DNA from: Tissierellia bacterium
GTDB taxonomy: Bacteria > Bacillota > Clostridia > Tissierellales > Peptoniphilaceae
Length of the DNA stretch: 64,000 nucleotides
Assembly: GCA_030532305.1 (NCBI GenBank)
Contig: JAUNLJ010000001.1
Location: 42,946 to 106,945 of the forward strand
Reading direction: 5' to 3'
Numbering within the stretch: position 1 is the first letter of the stretch; each line of letters begins with the position of its first letter. The position numbers and the translations under genes are program-made. Positions 18,986 through 48,857 of the stretch are shown one piece after another. The notes under the pieces were generated by a model. The model made no database searches, was not told the DNA's origin, and was given only the letters and a program-made list of their open reading frames with translations.

Positions 18986-19471
18986 TTAAGCTTGGGGATC
19001 TTGGTCTTGGTCAGAATCTTTCTTGGCCCGGTGTTTTAGGTAGTCTTTGACATCAATTCTTTGTCCGTCCTTAAGATAGACATAGAAATTACATTTAGCA
19101 ATAAGGCCCACCCCTAGACCGATTAAAACCAAGTGGGGGGCAAAAACGGTTCCTAGGGTCCCTAGGGTCAGGGACATATTGACAATTTCCTTGCCCTTGT
19201 CATCTTGGACTTCTAGACGGGTGGCATTGCCTGTGGCCACAATTTCCTTGATTCCTTCAGAAATTTCTTGGGCTAGCTTGTTGAGCTTGTCCCCCAGGTC
19301 CTTGTCTTCCTTGCCAGTGGCTGAAGCCTGGGCTTGGGTTCCGTGCTCTTCCATGATCTTTTCAATGGCCTTGTCCACATCCCCATCACAGGATAGGAGG
19401 GCTTCTCTAACAAGTTCATAGCTGGCTCCAGTTACTGAAATGACATAGTCAATTTTTTCCATAGTTATCAT
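18986..19471 (-). CDS. UBA-like / DUF4342 domain protein
   Basis: A 161-residue protein. Residues 4-45 look like a UBA/TS-N helical bundle (Gly-Ala-Ser-Tyr-Glu-Leu-Val-Arg-Glu-Ala-Leu-Leu, then Asp-Gly-Asp-Val-Asp-Lys-Ala-Ile), and residues about 60-145 match the DUF4342 pattern with a glycine-rich, hydrophobic stretch (about 105-127) that may insert in or lie on a membrane. The tail is highly charged. The function of the family is not known. AAGGAG is 9 nt before the ATG at 19471. It stands alone between the sda-lrg operon and the M16 gene. Confidence 0.75.
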   Translation of the reverse strand: MITMEKIDYVISVTGASYELVREALLSCDGDVDKAIEKIMEEHGTQAQASATGKEDKDLGDKLNKLAQEISEGIKEIVATGNATRLEVQDDKGKEIVNMSLTLGTLGTVFAPHLVLIGLGVGLIAKCNFYVYLKDGQRIDVKDYLKHRAKKDSDQDQDPQA

Positions 19472-19622: not shown

Positions 19623-20303
19623 TTAAAGGAATCTTACGAAAAAGGGTAGGACAAGGACCACAACAAGGCCTGCCAAGGCCAGGGCCAGGCCGGAAACAGC
19701 CCCAGAAATTTCTGAGGTCTCCCCGGCCTTGGAGGTCCCAAAGGCATGGGCACTGGTCCCGTAGGCGGCCCCCATGGCAGAGAGGTCCTTCATCTGGCCC
19801 AGCCTAATCAGGTAGGGGCCCAGTAAAACCCCCGCCAGCCCCCTTATGCTCACCATCATGGCGGCCAGGGTGGGATCCCCGCCAAACTCTGCCACCGCTG
19901 GCATGGCTATGGCCATGGTGGCAGACTGGGGAAGGATAGAAAGGATGATATTTTTGTCCAGGCCAAGGAGCCGGCCAAAGACAAGTATAGAAACCATGGA
20001 GACAATAATCCCCACCACAATCCCACCCCCTATGGGGATCAGCTGGTCCCTTAAATCCTCTAGGTTCTTATAAAAGGGGACCACCAGGGCCACGGTGGCT
20101 GGGGCCACCAAAAAGGAGATATACTGACCTCCCAGGGCATAGTGGTCATAGGGGATCTTAAAAAAGTATAGGGAGAGGATAATAAGAATCCCACTAATAA
20201 TAAGGGGGTTGGCCAAGGGCGAAGAGACCCGTTTTTTTACCTGGCTGCCCAAAAGGAAGGTAAAAAGGGTTAAGACTAAACCAAAATAGGGGTTATTGGT
20301 CAT
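19623..20303 (-). CDS. lrgB: LrgB/CidB-type membrane protein (pyruvate-transporter family)
   Basis: A 226-residue integral membrane protein with about six to seven hydrophobic segments and the LrgB blocks Pro-Gln-Ser-Ala-Thr-Met-Ala-Ile-Ala-Met-Pro and Gly-Thr-Ser-Ala-His-Ala-Phe-Gly-Thr. LrgB works with the small LrgA. The pair was first described as murein-hydrolase modulators, and homologues (PftAB of Bacillus subtilis, LrgAB of Streptococcus mutans) move pyruvate. It overlaps lrgA by 11 bp and is the last gene of the sdaAB-sdaAA-lrgA-lrgB unit, where pyruvate is the enzyme product. Pyruvate transport is therefore the more likely role here (inference). Confidence 0.9.
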   Translation of the reverse strand: MTNNPYFGLVLTLFTFLLGSQVKKRVSSPLANPLIISGILIILSLYFFKIPYDHYALGGQYISFLVAPATVALVVPFYKNLEDLRDQLIPIGGGIVVGIIVSMVSILVFGRLLGLDKNIILSILPQSATMAIAMPAVAEFGGDPTLAAMMVSIRGLAGVLLGPYLIRLGQMKDLSAMGAAYGTSAHAFGTSKAGETSEISGAVSGLALALAGLVVVLVLPFFVRFL

Positions 20304-20649
20304 GGCTGAACCTCCCTTGCAAAAAGGCCACGGTCTTGCCTGTGGCTATAAAGGTCAGGACCAGGGAAATAAGAGAGCTGGCTAAAATCTTCCCAAAGTC
20401 ACCAGCCACCTGGGGGTAGACATTGACCAGGTTGACCAGGGCAGGGATAAAAAACAGGGCCAAAAAGCCCACCAAGGTCTCTGCCACATGGTCTACCTGG
20501 TGGACCTTAAGCCAGCCCAGTTTAAGGACTAGAAAAAAGATGACCATCCCATAAACGGTCTCTGGAATGGGAAGTCCCAAAAGATTTTTAAGCCCAGTGC
20601 CAGCCAGTAGGCAGGCTAAAAGAACAAAGATCTGAAATATCGCCTTCAT
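20293..20649 (-). CDS. lrgA: LrgA/CidA-type holin-like membrane protein
   Basis: A 118-residue protein with four hydrophobic segments and the CidA/LrgA blocks Leu-Gly-Leu-Pro-Ile-Pro-Glu (about 25-31) and Phe-Ile-Pro-Ala-Leu-Val-Asn (about 70-76). It is the small partner of LrgB. It starts 9 bp after the sdaAA stop with a GGAGG-type ribosome site and overlaps lrgB by 11 bp, so both are likely made together with the serine dehydratase subunits. Classic lrgAB operons are controlled by LytSR; no such two-component genes are visible here. Confidence 0.9.
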   Translation of the reverse strand: MKAIFQIFVLLACLLAGTGLKNLLGLPIPETVYGMVIFFLVLKLGWLKVHQVDHVAETLVGFLALFFIPALVNLVNVYPQVAGDFGKILASSLISLVLTFIATGKTVAFLQGRFSHDQ

Positions 20650-20658
20650 ACTTCCTCC

Positions 20659-21531
20659 TTAAGAAAAAAACTTCCGGGTTAAGGCCTGGCCGGTCCGGGT
20701 GCCAGCCAGACCCCCTTCCCCAGTTTCCCGAAGACAGGTGGGCATGGCCTGGCCCACCTCTCCCATGGCCTGGCAGACTTCTTCAAAGGGAATGGGAGAG
20801 GTAACCCCGGCCAGGGCCAGGTCTGCTGAAATCATGGCATTGGTTACCCCAGAGGCGTTCCTTACACTACAGGGAAATTGGACCAGGCCCCCTAGGGGGT
20901 CACAGACTAGGCCTAAAACATTGACCAGGGCCAGGGAGGCCCCCTGGAAGACCTGGTCTACCCTGCCTCCAAATAGCTGGACCAGGGCGCCAGCAGCCAT
21001 GGCAGCTGCGGACCCACACTCGGCCTGGCAGCCCCCTTGGGCCCCAGAAAAACAGGCATAGCCCCCTATAAACTGGGCCACACCCACCCCAGCTAGGATC
21101 CCGTGAATAAGGTCCTCCCGCTCTAGGTCTAGCCTTTCCTTGGCCAGGGCCAGGGCTGCTGGCAGGATGCCGGCCGCCCCGGCTGTGGGCGCCGCCACAA
21201 TCTGCCCCATCTCCGCATTGGTTTCCGAAGTGGATAGGGCCCGGGCCATGGCCCGTAAAAGAGCTGGACTTGTAATGGGATTTTTAGCCTCCTGGGCATA
21301 GGTCCAGGTCTTCTTGGCAAAATCGTTGACCAGGTCCTGGGCAATGGCCGACCCCTTTTCTAGGGTGGCCTGGCTGGAGGCCTCCATAACGTCTAGCATC
21401 CGGTCTAGTTCTTTTAGGACCTCCTCCCGGCTGGCCTGGTCTCTGGCCAGCTCCCTTTCTAGGATATAGTCTGACAGGCGGATTTTATTTTTTTCACAAT
21501 AGTCTATGACTTCCTGGGCCTTATGAAACAT
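20659..21531 (-). CDS. sdaAA: L-serine dehydratase, iron-sulfur-dependent, alpha subunit
   Basis: Together with SdaAB converts L-serine to pyruvate and ammonia without PLP. The 290-residue protein has the four cysteines used for the [4Fe-4S] cluster region: the Cys-Phe-Ser-Gly-Ala-Gln-Gly-Gly-Cys-Gln-Ala-Glu-Cys-Gly block near 160-172 and the Cys-Asp-Pro-Leu-Gly-Gly-Leu-Val-Gln-x-Pro-Cys block near 208-219. It overlaps sdaAB by 11 bp. The two-subunit layout is that of Bacillota and anaerobes. The enzyme is oxygen sensitive, in line with an anaerobic host. Confidence 0.95.
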   Translation of the reverse strand: MFHKAQEVIDYCEKNKIRLSDYILERELARDQASREEVLKELDRMLDVMEASSQATLEKGSAIAQDLVNDFAKKTWTYAQEAKNPITSPALLRAMARALSTSETNAEMGQIVAAPTAGAAGILPAALALAKERLDLEREDLIHGILAGVGVAQFIGGYACFSGAQGGCQAECGSAAAMAAGALVQLFGGRVDQVFQGASLALVNVLGLVCDPLGGLVQFPCSVRNASGVTNAMISADLALAGVTSPIPFEEVCQAMGEVGQAMPTCLRETGEGGLAGTRTGQALTRKFFS

Positions 21532-22213
21532 GGTCTTCCTCCTTTACCAGGTCAATATATTTTGTAAAGATAAATTCGTCATTGGAAAAGATCCGGTCCA
21601 GGGCCTCCTGGTCCACCCTCTCGGTGGTCTCCACCAAAAGGGTCACCAAATTTTCTTCCTTGTGGGTAATAATGGACTCAATATTATAGGACCGGGTCAT
21701 AAGCTGGGAGGACACAAAGGCAATAATCCCAGGCTGGTCATAATACTGGACAATAAGGGCAGGAAATTCATTTTTAAATTCCACCTGGATATTGTTAATG
21801 GCAATAATCACAATATTCCCCCCACCAATGGAGGACCCCATAACCGAAAGCCTTTCCCCATCCTTAAAATAAAAGACAATCTCCACAGAATTAGGGTGGA
21901 CCTCCCCCAGGTCGGCCTTCTCAAAGGACCAGCTGATCCCCCTCTTTTTGGAAATCTCAAAGGCATGGAGGAGGTCCGGGTCAGAGGGGCCCAGGCCGTT
22001 GATCCCCCCCACCAGGGCCATGTCCGTCCCGTGACCCCGGTAGGTGGAGGCAAAGGACCCATGGAGGCGGAAGAGGACCCGGTCAAAGGCCTTGCCCTCG
22101 GTAATATTTAAGGCGGCCCCGGCAATTCGACAGGCCCCAGCCGTATGGGAGGAGGAGGGCCCCACCATAATGGGACCCACAATATCAAACACATTATATT
22201 TATTCAAAGTCAT
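21521..22213 (-). CDS. sdaAB: L-serine dehydratase, iron-sulfur-dependent, beta subunit
   Basis: The 230-residue beta subunit carries the Gly-Pro-Ser-Ser-Ser-His-Thr-Ala-Gly-Ala active-site block (18-27) and, from about residue 145, an ACT domain that in this family helps bind substrate or a regulator. It is the first gene of the operon: a TTGGCA/TATAAT promoter stands about 45 bp upstream, and GGAG precedes the ATG. Serine breakdown yields pyruvate and free ammonia, both important in amino-acid-fermenting anaerobes. It is divergent from pyrC, sharing a 140-bp spacer. Confidence 0.95.
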   Translation of the reverse strand: MTLNKYNVFDIVGPIMVGPSSSHTAGACRIAGAALNITEGKAFDRVLFRLHGSFASTYRGHGTDMALVGGINGLGPSDPDLLHAFEISKKRGISWSFEKADLGEVHPNSVEIVFYFKDGERLSVMGSSIGGGNIVIIAINNIQVEFKNEFPALIVQYYDQPGIIAFVSSQLMTRSYNIESIITHKEENLVTLLVETTERVDQEALDRIFSNDEFIFTKYIDLVKEEDHVS

Positions 22214-22257: not shown

Positions 22258-22286
22258 ATTATAATCTAATCTCCCCCAATTGCCAA
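22258..22286 (-). promoter_or_regulatory. Promoter of the sdaAB-sdaAA-lrgA-lrgB operon
   Basis: Minus-strand TTGGCA (22286-22281) and TATAAT (22263-22258) with a 17-bp spacer. The start of sdaAB is 45 bp downstream of the -10 box. Confidence 0.78.
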
Positions 22287-22353: not shown

Positions 22354-23631
22354 ATGGATTTACTAATACAGGGCGTGGATATTTTTGATCCTGTCGCCGA
22401 CCGTCTCTTAAAAAAGCAAGATATTAAGATCCTAGATGGGATCATTAGGGAAGTGGGAGAAGACCTCCAGGAGGAGGGCCTCCCCACCTGCCAGGCCCCT
22501 GGCTCTTACGTCTTTCCAGGCCTGGTGGATGTCCATGTCCACTTTAGGGACCCGGGCCAAACCCACAAGGAAGACCTAATGTCTGGGTCCCAGGCGGCCC
22601 TGGCCGGGGGCTTTAGCCAAGTCATCTGCATGGCCAACACGGCCCCTGCCATAGATAGCCCCCAAAGGGTGGAGGCCTTCTACAAAAAGGCCCAGGCCTC
22701 CCCCATCGACCTCCACACCGTGGCGGGCCTCACCAAAAACCTCAAGGGCCAAGAACTCACCGACCTGGAAGGCTTGGCCCAAGCCGGTGCCGTGGGCTTT
22801 TCCGATGATGGCTTTCCCCTGGCAGACCCCAGCCTTCTCTATGAGGCCATGGTCCGGGCCCGGGCCCTGGACCTCCCCATCAGCCTCCACGAGGAAGACC
22901 CGGCCTTTATTGGCAAGCCCGGCGTCAATGCTGGCCCCGTGGCCCAAGACCTAAACCACCCGGGGGCCTCCTCCCTGGCTGAAGAAGTCCTTATTGCCCG
23001 GGACGGGGCCATGGCCCTAGATACAGGCTGTAAGCTGGATATCCAGCACCTATCCACCCGTCTGGGGGCCCAGCTGGTTAAATTCTACCGGGACCAGGGG
23101 GCCCAAATAGTGGCTGAGGTGACCCCCCACCACTTTAGCCTGACCGAAGAAAGCCTTTTAGAATGGGGAAGCCTGGCCAAGGTCAACCCCCCCATCCGGA
23201 GGGAAGAAGACCGCCAGGCCCTGGTCCAGGGGCTAAAAGATGGGTCCCTGTCCCTTATTGCCTCTGACCACGCCCCCCACACCCTGGATGAAAAGGCCTA
23301 CCCCCTTACCCATGCCCCCTCTGGCATGGTGGGGCTAGAAACGGCCCTGGCTCTAGGCCACACCCTCCTGGTCCTGGGCGGCCACCTGTCCATGATGGAC
23401 CTGGTGAAAAAGATGTCCCTAAACCCAGCCCGCTTTTATAAGCTGGACCTACCCAGCCTAGAGCCTGGCCAAAGGGCCAACCTCTGCCTCTTTGACCCTA
23501 AAAAAACCTGGACCATTGGGCCCGAGACCTTTAAGGGCAAGAGTCAAAACTCCCCCTTTATGGGTTATAAGGTCACCGGCCAGGTCCAGGGGGTCTTTAC
23601 AAAGAACCACTGGCATGAAATCAACCTATAA
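22354..23631 (+). CDS. pyrC: Dihydroorotase
   Basis: Closes carbamoyl-aspartate to dihydroorotate, step three of UMP synthesis. The 425-residue protein is a type I (class I) amidohydrolase: the zinc motif is Val-His-Val-His-Phe-Arg-Asp-Pro-Gly (His61, His63), followed by Met-Ala-Asn-Thr-Ala-Pro and, near the C-terminus, Ser-Asp-His-Ala-Pro-His with the catalytic Asp. AGGAGG lies 7 nt before the ATG. It is monocistronic and divergent from sdaAB, apart from the other pyr genes. A shared bidirectional terminator follows. Confidence 0.95.
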   Translation: MDLLIQGVDIFDPVADRLLKKQDIKILDGIIREVGEDLQEEGLPTCQAPGSYVFPGLVDVHVHFRDPGQTHKEDLMSGSQAALAGGFSQVICMANTAPAIDSPQRVEAFYKKAQASPIDLHTVAGLTKNLKGQELTDLEGLAQAGAVGFSDDGFPLADPSLLYEAMVRARALDLPISLHEEDPAFIGKPGVNAGPVAQDLNHPGASSLAEEVLIARDGAMALDTGCKLDIQHLSTRLGAQLVKFYRDQGAQIVAEVTPHHFSLTEESLLEWGSLAKVNPPIRREEDRQALVQGLKDGSLSLIASDHAPHTLDEKAYPLTHAPSGMVGLETALALGHTLLVLGGHLSMMDLVKKMSLNPARFYKLDLPSLEPGQRANLCLFDPKKTWTIGPETFKGKSQNSPFMGYKVTGQVQGVFTKNHWHEINL

Positions 23632-23681: not shown

Positions 23682-24707
23682 TTAAAAGGAAGCTAATCCT
23701 TTTAGGTCCTCTAGGAGGCCTTGGACCTCCTGGTCCTGGGTCCTGTAGGTGGTTACAAAACGGATGGCTGTGTCCTCTCCCACCTCTTCAATAATTTCAA
23801 ACCAGTTCTTTTTAGCCAGGTCTTCCAGGTCTTTTGTGGGGACCTTAATAAAAATCTGGTTGGACTGGGGGGTGGCGTAGAAGTCCACCCCTAAATCTTT
23901 TAGGCCATCAGATAGTTTTTTGGCCTGACGGTTGGCCTGGGTGGCAATCTCGTCATAAAGCCCATCCCTAAAGAGGACTTCAAACTGGGCCCCCAAGAGG
24001 AAGGACTTGGCCATAAGGGCCCCCTGCTGCTTGAGATAGTAGTTAAACTTGTCCCCTAGCTTGGGATCATTAAAGACCAGGGCATCCCCAAACATGGCCC
24101 CGTTTTTGGTCCCCCCTATGGAGAAAATGTCGCAGACCCGGGCCAGGTCCTTCCAGGTCATATCAGAATCCCAGCTGTAAAGGGCAGAGCCCAGCCGGGC
24201 CCCATCTATATAGAGGTAGACCCCGTGGTCCTGGCAAACGTCATAAATAGCCCTTAGCTCATCTAGCTGGTAGATGGTCCCCTTTTCTGTAGACTGGGAC
24301 ACATAGACCATGCCCGGGAGGACATTGTGGAAGTCCCCAAAGGAGGCCAGGCTCTTGTCCAGGTCCCCGGCCTTGATCTTGCCATCTACTTCCTCCAGGT
24401 TAATGACCCGGTGGCCCTTGGCCTGGATGGCCCCCACTTCATCGTTGACAATATGGCCACTGGCTGGAGAGAGAATGGCCTCGTGGGGTCTTAGGGGGAA
24501 GGTTAGGCCCAGCATATTGCAGGCAGTAGCTCCCGGCAAAAGATAGATAAGGCTATGGGAATCTAGGACCTCCTGGATCCTCTTTCTAGCCCCCTCTACC
24601 CAAGCATCATAGCCATAGCCTGGGGTCTTGTCTTCCTCTAGGGCCCTTAGGGCCTCCAGGACCCTGGGGTGGCAAAGGTCGTTATAGTCGTTTACAAAGG
24701 TATTCAT
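23682..24707 (-). CDS. ltaE: Low-specificity L-threonine aldolase-type PLP enzyme
   Basis: A 341-residue fold-type I PLP enzyme of the beta-eliminating lyase/threonine aldolase family. The Schiff-base lysine is Lys201 in Ile-Gly-Gly-Thr-Lys-Asn-Gly, preceded by Tyr-Ile-Asp-Gly-Ala-Arg (Asp168 holds the pyridine ring). It splits threonine or allo-threonine to glycine and acetaldehyde, and may also act on beta-hydroxy amino acids. It ends at the bidirectional terminator shared with pyrC and faces away from the next PLP gene. A separate promoter upstream is weak by eye. Confidence 0.88.
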   Translation of the reverse strand: MNTFVNDYNDLCHPRVLEALRALEEDKTPGYGYDAWVEGARKRIQEVLDSHSLIYLLPGATACNMLGLTFPLRPHEAILSPASGHIVNDEVGAIQAKGHRVINLEEVDGKIKAGDLDKSLASFGDFHNVLPGMVYVSQSTEKGTIYQLDELRAIYDVCQDHGVYLYIDGARLGSALYSWDSDMTWKDLARVCDIFSIGGTKNGAMFGDALVFNDPKLGDKFNYYLKQQGALMAKSFLLGAQFEVLFRDGLYDEIATQANRQAKKLSDGLKDLGVDFYATPQSNQIFIKVPTKDLEDLAKKNWFEIIEEVGEDTAIRFVTTYRTQDQEVQGLLEDLKGLASF

Positions 24708-39172: not shown

Positions 39173-39378
39173 AAAAAAGCCCGTGCAGGCTGCACAGGCT
39201 AAAGGCTTTAACATAAACTTAGTCTATACATCGTAGAACTAAAATTTCTAAAGATATCCTGACTTAAGCGTCCTCATCTGATCCTGCCTCCCTAGTTTTA
39301 CTGGCATCTTGGACAGACTCGGCTATTACAGTGGCGAGACCGTGTGGGACTTGCACCCAGCTTCCCTTATTTATAGAC
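39173..39378 (-). promoter_or_regulatory. Cobalamin riboswitch with terminator
   Basis: The minus strand carries the conserved parts of a cobalamin (B12) element: GTGCAAGTCCC, then CGGTCTCGCCACTGTAA (B12-box, GCCACTGTAA at 39335-39326), and at the 3' side AAGTCAGGATATC. It is followed by a hairpin AGCCTGTGCA/TGCACGGGCT and six T (39201-39173), a terminator. Bound B12 would shut off btuFCD. A strong promoter lies at 39383-39411. Confidence 0.93.
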
Positions 39379-39382
39379 TTAA

Positions 39383-39411
39383 ATTATAGCAAAGTCTTCT
39401 AAATATGTCAA
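39383..39411 (-). promoter_or_regulatory. Promoter of the btuFCD operon
   Basis: Minus-strand consensus TTGACA (39411-39406) and TATAAT (39388-39383), spacer 17 bp. Confidence 0.88.
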
Positions 39412-39518
39412 TTTTAGGCCTTCTTTTAGGGGCCCTGGCCTAATTTTCAAGATTTATTTCCTCCCTTTAGAATAGGCCCCCCCTGGCAGGGTATATAAAA
39501 AATAAGAGGAGGGATTGT

Positions 39519-40502: not shown

Positions 40503-40702
40503 TATATGGTTACTCCACCTAGCCGGTCTTCTACTAATTTTTACCCTCGTATATGAAGGTGGGTATCCTACCAGCAACATCTAACTTCCGCTCAAGGACG
40601 GCCTGTTATCCGAGGCTGAATTTCCAGACAACCCATATCTAATGTGTAGGTTAAATTATTCGAAGATAATCGAACTAAGTAGAGAAAAACCCTTAGTGCT
40701 TA
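40503..40702 (-). ncRNA. Putative 6S-like regulatory RNA
   Basis: About 200 nt of transcript without a coding frame. A minus-strand promoter (TTGAAA-17-TATAAT at 40737-40709) starts it, and the shared terminator at 40500-40467 ends it. The RNA can fold as a rod: a closing stem (40673-40682 with 40531-40539, and 40649-40655 with 40540-40546), a symmetric 13-nt/13-nt internal bubble (40636-40648 and 40547-40559), then ACCCA/TGGGT (40631-40635 with 40560-40564) and further nested pairs to a terminal hairpin. This is the shape of 6S RNA, which mimics an open promoter and binds RNA polymerase. I could not match a conserved 6S sequence from memory. Confidence 0.62.
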
Positions 40703-48600: not shown

Positions 48601-48835
48601 AAAAAAAGCCGCCTCTATATAGAGGCGACTATTTGTCACGGTACCACTCCAATTAAGCAGGCTAGGCTGCTTATCTCTTATCCTATAACGGGGATCTTAA
48701 CCGTAGGCTGATACTCGGCTGGGCCTTTGTCAACCTAATCTCCACGGTCCTCTTCGTTTCTTCCGTCCCCTTGGCCCTCTCAGCAAACAAGGCCTTCTCT
48801 GTAAAAGTTCTTGAAAAACTACTCTCCGTGTCATC
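48601..48835 (-). promoter_or_regulatory. First T-box, upstream of the binding-protein gene (specifier AGG)
   Basis: Minus strand: GGAGTGGTACCGTG (48650-48637) is the T-box core, followed by a GTCGCCTCTA/TAGAGGCGGC terminator and seven T. Stem I: lower helix CACGG (48830-48826)/CCGTG (48748-48744), 3' specifier loop GAAGAGGA with AGG at 48751-48749 followed by A. AGG is arginine; shifting by one base gives GAG (Glu) or AGA/GGA, so the register is likely but not certain. Confidence 0.85.
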
Positions 48836-48857
48836 GAAAATTAAATAATTTAGACAT

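What the first reader, a model, noticed from the sequence alone, without database searches (positions are those of the whole stretch)
19623..22213. Serine dehydratase genes and an LrgA/LrgB pair in one tight operon
sdaAB, sdaAA, lrgA and lrgB overlap or are 9 bp apart behind one TTGGCA-17-TATAAT promoter. The enzyme makes pyruvate and ammonia; LrgAB-type proteins (PftAB in B. subtilis, LrgAB in S. mutans) move pyruvate. The arrangement suggests a serine-to-pyruvate export or exchange module, and gives an independent clue to the role of LrgAB outside cell lysis.
Basis: partly seen in the sequence, partly recalled or inferred. Interest (0 to 1): 0.7.

Follow-up and report, generated by a model that had tools for sequence, protein, structure and literature searches.

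The report
Serine-breakdown operon with a pyruvate permease
In one lineage of anaerobic bacteria, the genes for the enzyme that turns serine into pyruvate have gained, in the same tight operon, the two genes of a membrane protein pair known elsewhere to move pyruvate, which suggests that the cell controls how pyruvate made from serine crosses its membrane.

Summary
In detail: sdaAB, sdaAA, lrgA and lrgB form a minus-strand run (22213-19623) with 11-bp overlaps and one 9-bp gap, behind TTGGCA-17-TATAAT. All four families are firm. The linkage, however, is private to this lineage. Among 249 genomes of the order (147 with LrgB) no other listed one has LrgB beside SdaAA. Its nearest kin by SdaAA keep the same block (pyrC | sdaAB sdaAA | DUF4342) without lrgAB, and their own lrgB is a different lineage lying elsewhere. 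So lrgAB was probably inserted behind sdaAA. In relatives that slot often holds an SstT-like symporter, while lrgAB often sits with the FAD lactate dehydrogenase/Bcd/EtfBA cluster, also pyruvate-forming. The own genome lacks SDF and SdaC-type serine carriers, FAD-oxidase_C and LytTR regulators, but has an AGCS symporter and pyruvate:ferredoxin oxidoreductase. Best reading: LrgAB is a gradient-driven pyruvate/monocarboxylate permease made together with the pyruvate-producing enzyme. Direction is open; published work shows uptake (S. mutans, S. aureus) or two-way transport (B. subtilis), so 'export' is not established. Pyruvate transport by LrgAB outside lysis is already known. A new gene-order variant with moderate support, not independent proof of function.

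The parts
22258..22286 (-). sigma-70-like promoter TTGGCA-17-TATAAT, about 44 nt before sdaAB
   Evidence: (11 of 12 matches); not conserved in sister genomes; consensus match only
21521..22213 (-). sdaAB, L-serine dehydratase beta subunit
   Evidence: TIGR00719 221.8 bits, PF03315; N-terminal match to solved serine dehydratases 2iqq and 4rqo
20659..21531 (-). sdaAA, L-serine dehydratase alpha subunit, [4Fe-4S] type
   Evidence: TIGR00718 365.4 bits, PF03313; match to 4rqo; three cysteines C168, C210, C221 conserved
20654..20660 (-). Shine-Dalgarno AAGGAGG of lrgA, sharing two bases with the sdaAA stop codon
   Evidence: sequence
20293..20649 (-). lrgA, small membrane partner
   Evidence: PF03788 81.2 bits
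19623..20303 (-). lrgB, main membrane subunit; only LrgB of the genome
   Evidence: PF04172 224.1 bits; one match in the genome; long branch in the family tree
18986..19471 (-). DUF4342/UBA_4 gene, the ancestral downstream neighbour of sdaAA; probably not in the operon (151-bp gap with its own promoter-like site)
   Evidence: PF14242 and PF14555; same neighbour directly after sdaAA in sister genomes
22354..23631 (+). pyrC-like dihydroorotase, divergent upstream neighbour, conserved in sister genomes; not part of the operon
   Evidence: PF01979; gene order

Best explanation
The four genes are one operon. SdaAB/SdaAA, a [4Fe-4S] enzyme, splits L-serine into pyruvate and ammonia; LrgA and LrgB form a membrane complex of the PftAB/LrgAB kind that lets pyruvate (perhaps other small 2-oxo or 2-hydroxy acids) cross along its gradient. 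Making the permease with the enzyme matches permeability to pyruvate supply: overflow leaves when serine is plentiful, and pyruvate is taken back, or taken from neighbours, when serine runs out; inside, pyruvate:ferredoxin oxidoreductase uses it. The arrangement arose in this lineage by insertion of an lrgAB pair between sdaAA and the DUF4342 gene, so lrgAB lost its usual LytST-type control and came under the sda promoter. Shown: gene content, order, spacing, absence in kin, absence of LytTR and FAD-oxidase_C genes. Inferred: co-transcription, insertion, substrate, direction.
For: Overlapping or 9-bp junctions with full ribosome sites. Complete enzyme with conserved cluster cysteines, spacing 42 and 11. 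LrgAB relatives transport pyruvate: PftAB two-way (PMC5626966), S. mutans (PMC6790026), S. aureus (PMC8805020). In family and order genomes 18 of 54 LrgB genes read in context lie within five genes of an FAD lactate/glycolate-type dehydrogenase, usually with Bcd and EtfBA, the lct cluster of F. nucleatum (PMC12630350). SdaAA is sister to genera whose sda block has the same neighbours but no lrgAB; LrgB does not group with theirs, p-AU 0.003. A short stretch after lrgB resembles the stretch after sdaAA in those kin, 4-10 of 500 shuffles as good. No LytTR in the genome; PFOR present.
Against: The linkage is in one genome only, so conservation by selection cannot be tested. No substrate-binding residues of LrgB are known to me to check; window LrgB is on a long branch, so its substrate may differ. 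LrgB also sits beside many unrelated genes in relatives, so neighbours predict its substrate only loosely. Exporting pyruvate wastes ATP that the PFOR route would give.
Confidence: 0.55

Rival explanations
1. Pyruvate supply module: LrgAB works as an importer. The operon feeds pyruvate from two sources, serine inside and pyruvate outside, under one control; export is not its role.
For: S. mutans LrgAB mutants still excrete pyruvate but fail to take it back (PMC6790026); S. aureus lrgAB is needed for microaerobic growth on pyruvate (PMC8805020); PFOR is present to use it.
Against: B. subtilis PftAB is gradient-driven in both directions (PMC5626966), so one-way import is not a family trait; no evidence on direction here.
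Confidence: 0.2
2. Serine entry or serine/pyruvate exchange: LrgAB fills the transporter slot that an SstT-like Na+ symporter holds in relatives' sda operons, and brings serine in, perhaps against pyruvate, as plant PLGG1 moves glycolate and glycerate.
For: In 12 of 51 sda loci read, the gene after sdaAA is an SDF symporter, mostly 1-27 bp away; the own genome has no SDF and no SdaC-family carrier; PLGG1 is an LrgAB homologue with other C2/C3 acids as substrates (PMC8805020, PMC4368765); window LrgB is unusually diverged.
Against: No LrgAB member known to me carries an amino acid; an AGCS alanine/glycine-type symporter is present and could bring serine in; window LrgB keeps 38 of 42 family-conserved positions.
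Confidence: 0.1
3. Neutral insertion: lrgAB landed behind sdaAA by chance and merely uses its promoter; its function (another acid, or a role in lysis and stress) has nothing to do with serine.
For: Single lineage; LrgB neighbours in relatives vary widely: ABC transporters, a CLC channel, ArsA, MBL/SurE genes.
Against: Landing directly behind one of few pyruvate-forming enzymes, in the right direction with a fitted ribosome site, is a small target in a 1.5-Mb genome (an estimate by reasoning, not computed); other lrgAB pairs of the family also stand with a pyruvate-forming enzyme.
Confidence: 0.15

Closest known systems
PftAB (YsbAB) of Bacillus subtilis
   Same: LrgA/LrgB-family pair, presumed pyruvate permease
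   Different: pftAB is a separate operon induced by LytST with pyruvate (PMC5626966); here it lies behind sdaAA and the genome has no LytTR gene
lct cluster of Fusobacterium nucleatum (ldh, bcd, etf, lrgAB)
   Same: lrgAB in a cluster with a pyruvate-forming enzyme; the same cluster occurs in relatives of the window
   Different: Here the enzyme is serine dehydratase, and the genome has no FAD-oxidase_C protein
sdaAB-sdaAA-SDF symporter operon of Peptoniphilaceae (e.g. P. asaccharolyticus, L095)
   Same: Two-subunit serine dehydratase with a transporter gene directly behind sdaAA
   Different: The transporter is an SstT-like Na+ symporter (SDF), absent from this genome
S. aureus lrgAB/cidABC
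   Same: Same two families; lrgAB tied to pyruvate import
   Different: S. aureus genes are under LytSR/CidR and also linked to holin-like lysis; no lysis gene is seen next to the window pair
Plant PLGG1
   Same: LrgAB homologue that carries small monocarboxylates
   Different: A plastid protein for glycolate and glycerate (from literature)

Membership tests
Fe-S L-serine dehydratase, two-subunit type | alpha and beta subunits over curated cut-offs, encoded side by side | tested here: met
   TIGR00718 365.4/243.2 and TIGR00719 221.8/161.2 bits
Fe-S L-serine dehydratase, two-subunit type | three cysteine ligands of the [4Fe-4S] cluster | tested here: met
   C168, C210, C221 align with cysteines of 4rqo, spacing 42 and 11; that these are the ligands is from memory of the Legionella enzyme's structure
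LrgAB/PftAB family | LrgA and LrgB Pfam families, adjacent genes | tested here: met
   PF03788 and PF04172 over cut-off, 11-bp overlap
LrgAB/PftAB family | pyruvate transport activity | not testable with these tools
   needs transport assay; the NCBIfam LrgB/LrgA equivalog cut-offs are not reached, so no curated function name applies
LytST-controlled lrgAB/pftAB operon | LytTR-type response regulator in the genome | tested here: not met
   no PF04397 match in the 97.5% complete genome
lct lactate-utilisation cluster | FAD lactate dehydrogenase with Bcd and EtfBA next to lrgAB | tested here: not met
   absent around the locus; no PF02913 in the genome
sda operon with SstT-like serine symporter | SDF-family symporter gene behind sdaAA | tested here: not met
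   lrgA stands there; no PF00375 in the genome
Holin/lysis module (cid/lrg sense) | holin activity or partner murein hydrolase | not testable with these tools
   no murein hydrolase gene among the direct neighbours; activity needs experiment

The most novel reading that the evidence does not exclude
LrgAB here has taken the place of the serine symporter of relatives' sda operons and exchanges serine for pyruvate (substrate for product), which would extend the LrgAB family to an amino acid.
Probability: 0.08. Interest if true: 0.75.

Novelty: new variant of a known kind. Interest (0 to 1): 0.42.

Why it matters
LrgA/LrgB proteins are still widely annotated as autolysis modulators. An lrgAB pair freed from its usual regulator and wired to the gene for a pyruvate-forming enzyme is a natural test case for the transport role and for substrate range (pyruvate only, or other C3 acids, even serine). 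It also shows that the transporter slot of the sda operon changes between lineages. As a single-lineage arrangement it is a lead, not proof.

Tried and rejected
Linkage in the family, order and a phylum sample: searched and not found outside the window. G041 and G105 have lrgAB 6 and 12 kb from sda, in other operons; not counted as linkage. The match lists were cut at about 155 rows, so for a few genomes the coordinate test is incomplete. A scan of GTDB contigs with LrgB gave only two relatives (46% and 43%) and no sibling with the linkage. Foreign DNA by composition: lrgAB GC3 0.59-0.64 against 0.62-0.70 in most neighbours, no sign of recent import. Exclusion of window LrgB from a broader clade that includes the sister genera was not significant (p-AU 0.065), so only the narrow grouping is rejected. 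Structure prediction of LrgB from three sequences was poor (pLDDT 53), so no fold search was made; no solved relative of LrgB in the PDB by sequence. Promoter conservation in sister genomes not found. Plasmid records hold only LrgB below 60% identity; their neighbourhoods were not read. Papers pairing LrgAB with serine dehydratase show no operon link where read.

Full report
Observation. The families are secure. SdaAA keeps three cysteines with spacing 42 and 11 that align with cysteines of the solved serine dehydratase 4rqo. Every start has a Shine-Dalgarno sequence; that of lrgA (AAGGAGG) begins inside the sdaAA stop codon. The promoter-like TTGGCA-17-TATAAT matches 11 of 12 positions and is the best site in 6 kb. 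No known regulatory RNA lies in the operon. Co-transcription is therefore very likely but not shown.

Where the window lies. The genome is 1.52 Mb, 97.5% complete.

Is the linkage conserved? No. LrgB occurs in 79 of 130 genomes of the family and 147 of 249 of the order; serine dehydratase alpha in 128 of 130, or 228 of 249 with the window SdaAA as query. By coordinates no listed genome other than the window's has the two within 5 kb (G041 6 kb and G105 12 kb are nearest, in separate operons; the lists are cut at about 155 rows). Reading the DNA around 54 LrgB genes of the family and order found SdaAA within three genes only in the window; 49 LrgB loci of a phylum-wide sample gave none.

How it arose. 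In the SdaAA tree the window is sister (100/98) to genera g2 and g19. These have the same block, pyrC divergent (g2), then sdaAB sdaAA, then DUF4342 (in four of the five genomes read: G071, G004, G005, G007; DUF4342 was not found in G003), but no lrgAB in it. Their own lrgAB lies elsewhere, next to amino-acid ABC transporter genes in G003, G007 and G071. In the LrgB tree the window protein has a long branch and does not group with them; forcing it is rejected (p-AU 0.003), although a broader grouping is not (0.065). A short stretch after lrgB resembles the stretch after sdaAA in these kin (4-10 of 500 shuffles as good; suggestive only). The simplest account is an insertion of an lrgAB pair between sdaAA and its ancestral downstream neighbour. 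Base composition gives no sign that it was recent.

What neighbours say. In 12 of 51 sda loci read, the gene directly after sdaAA is an SDF-family symporter whose best named relative is SstT, though below that model's cut-off. These form one clade on the SdaAA tree. In the LrgB set 18 of 54 lie with an FAD lactate/glycolate-type dehydrogenase, usually with acyl-CoA dehydrogenase and EtfBA, which is the lct cluster described in Fusobacterium nucleatum, where LrgAB is suggested to move pyruvate or lactate (PMC12630350). So lrgAB has joined two different pyruvate-forming systems in this family. The own genome has no SDF, no SdaC-family carrier, no FAD-oxidase_C and no LytTR protein, but has an AGCS symporter and a 1178-residue frame with the pyruvate:ferredoxin oxidoreductase domain. 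Its lrgAB is thus cut off from the usual regulator and partners.

Mechanism. Shown: gene content, order, spacing, absence in kin, absence of usual partners. From the literature: PftAB is a pyruvate-specific, gradient-driven, two-way permease (PMC5626966); S. mutans LrgAB takes pyruvate up and is not needed for excretion (PMC6790026); S. aureus lrgAB imports pyruvate, and both subunits are needed (PMC8805020); PLGG1 carries glycolate and glycerate (PMC8805020, PMC4368765). Inferred: the window pair is a pyruvate permease made together with the enzyme, passing overflow out and taking pyruvate back. The word 'export' in the finding is not supported over import. Serine/pyruvate exchange is possible but has no precedent known to me.

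Verdict. A real, tidy, lineage-specific operon; a new variant of a known kind; moderate interest. It does not by itself give an independent proof of LrgAB function, since it occurs once.

Noticed in passing
L107 (G044) and L113 (G043): Two lrgAB pairs in tandem, close to MBL-fold and (in L107) SurE genes and a YycF-like regulator with histidine kinase.
   Followed up: no
L144, L145, L164 (genomes G003, G007, G065): lrgAB is followed within 18-65 bp by a ClC-type chloride channel with TrkA-C domain and a periplasmic-binding-protein gene; a possible operon of unknown role (domains scanned in L144 only).
   Followed up: partly
L146, L156 (G009, G036): lrgAB is followed by two adjacent related genes; the first of L146 is an ArsA-type anion-transporting ATPase.
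   Followed up: partly
window 18986-19471: DUF4342 protein with an N-terminal UBA-like domain, kept beside sdaAA in sister genera; function unknown.
   Followed up: no
window 48618-48843, 40508-40688, 39235-39416: T-box leader, 6S RNA and cobalamin riboswitch, all minus strand.
   Followed up: no
window 23682-24707: Beta-eliminating lyase (threonine-aldolase-like) gene near the sda operon; a homologue also lies near sda in G003, G071 and G005.
   Followed up: no
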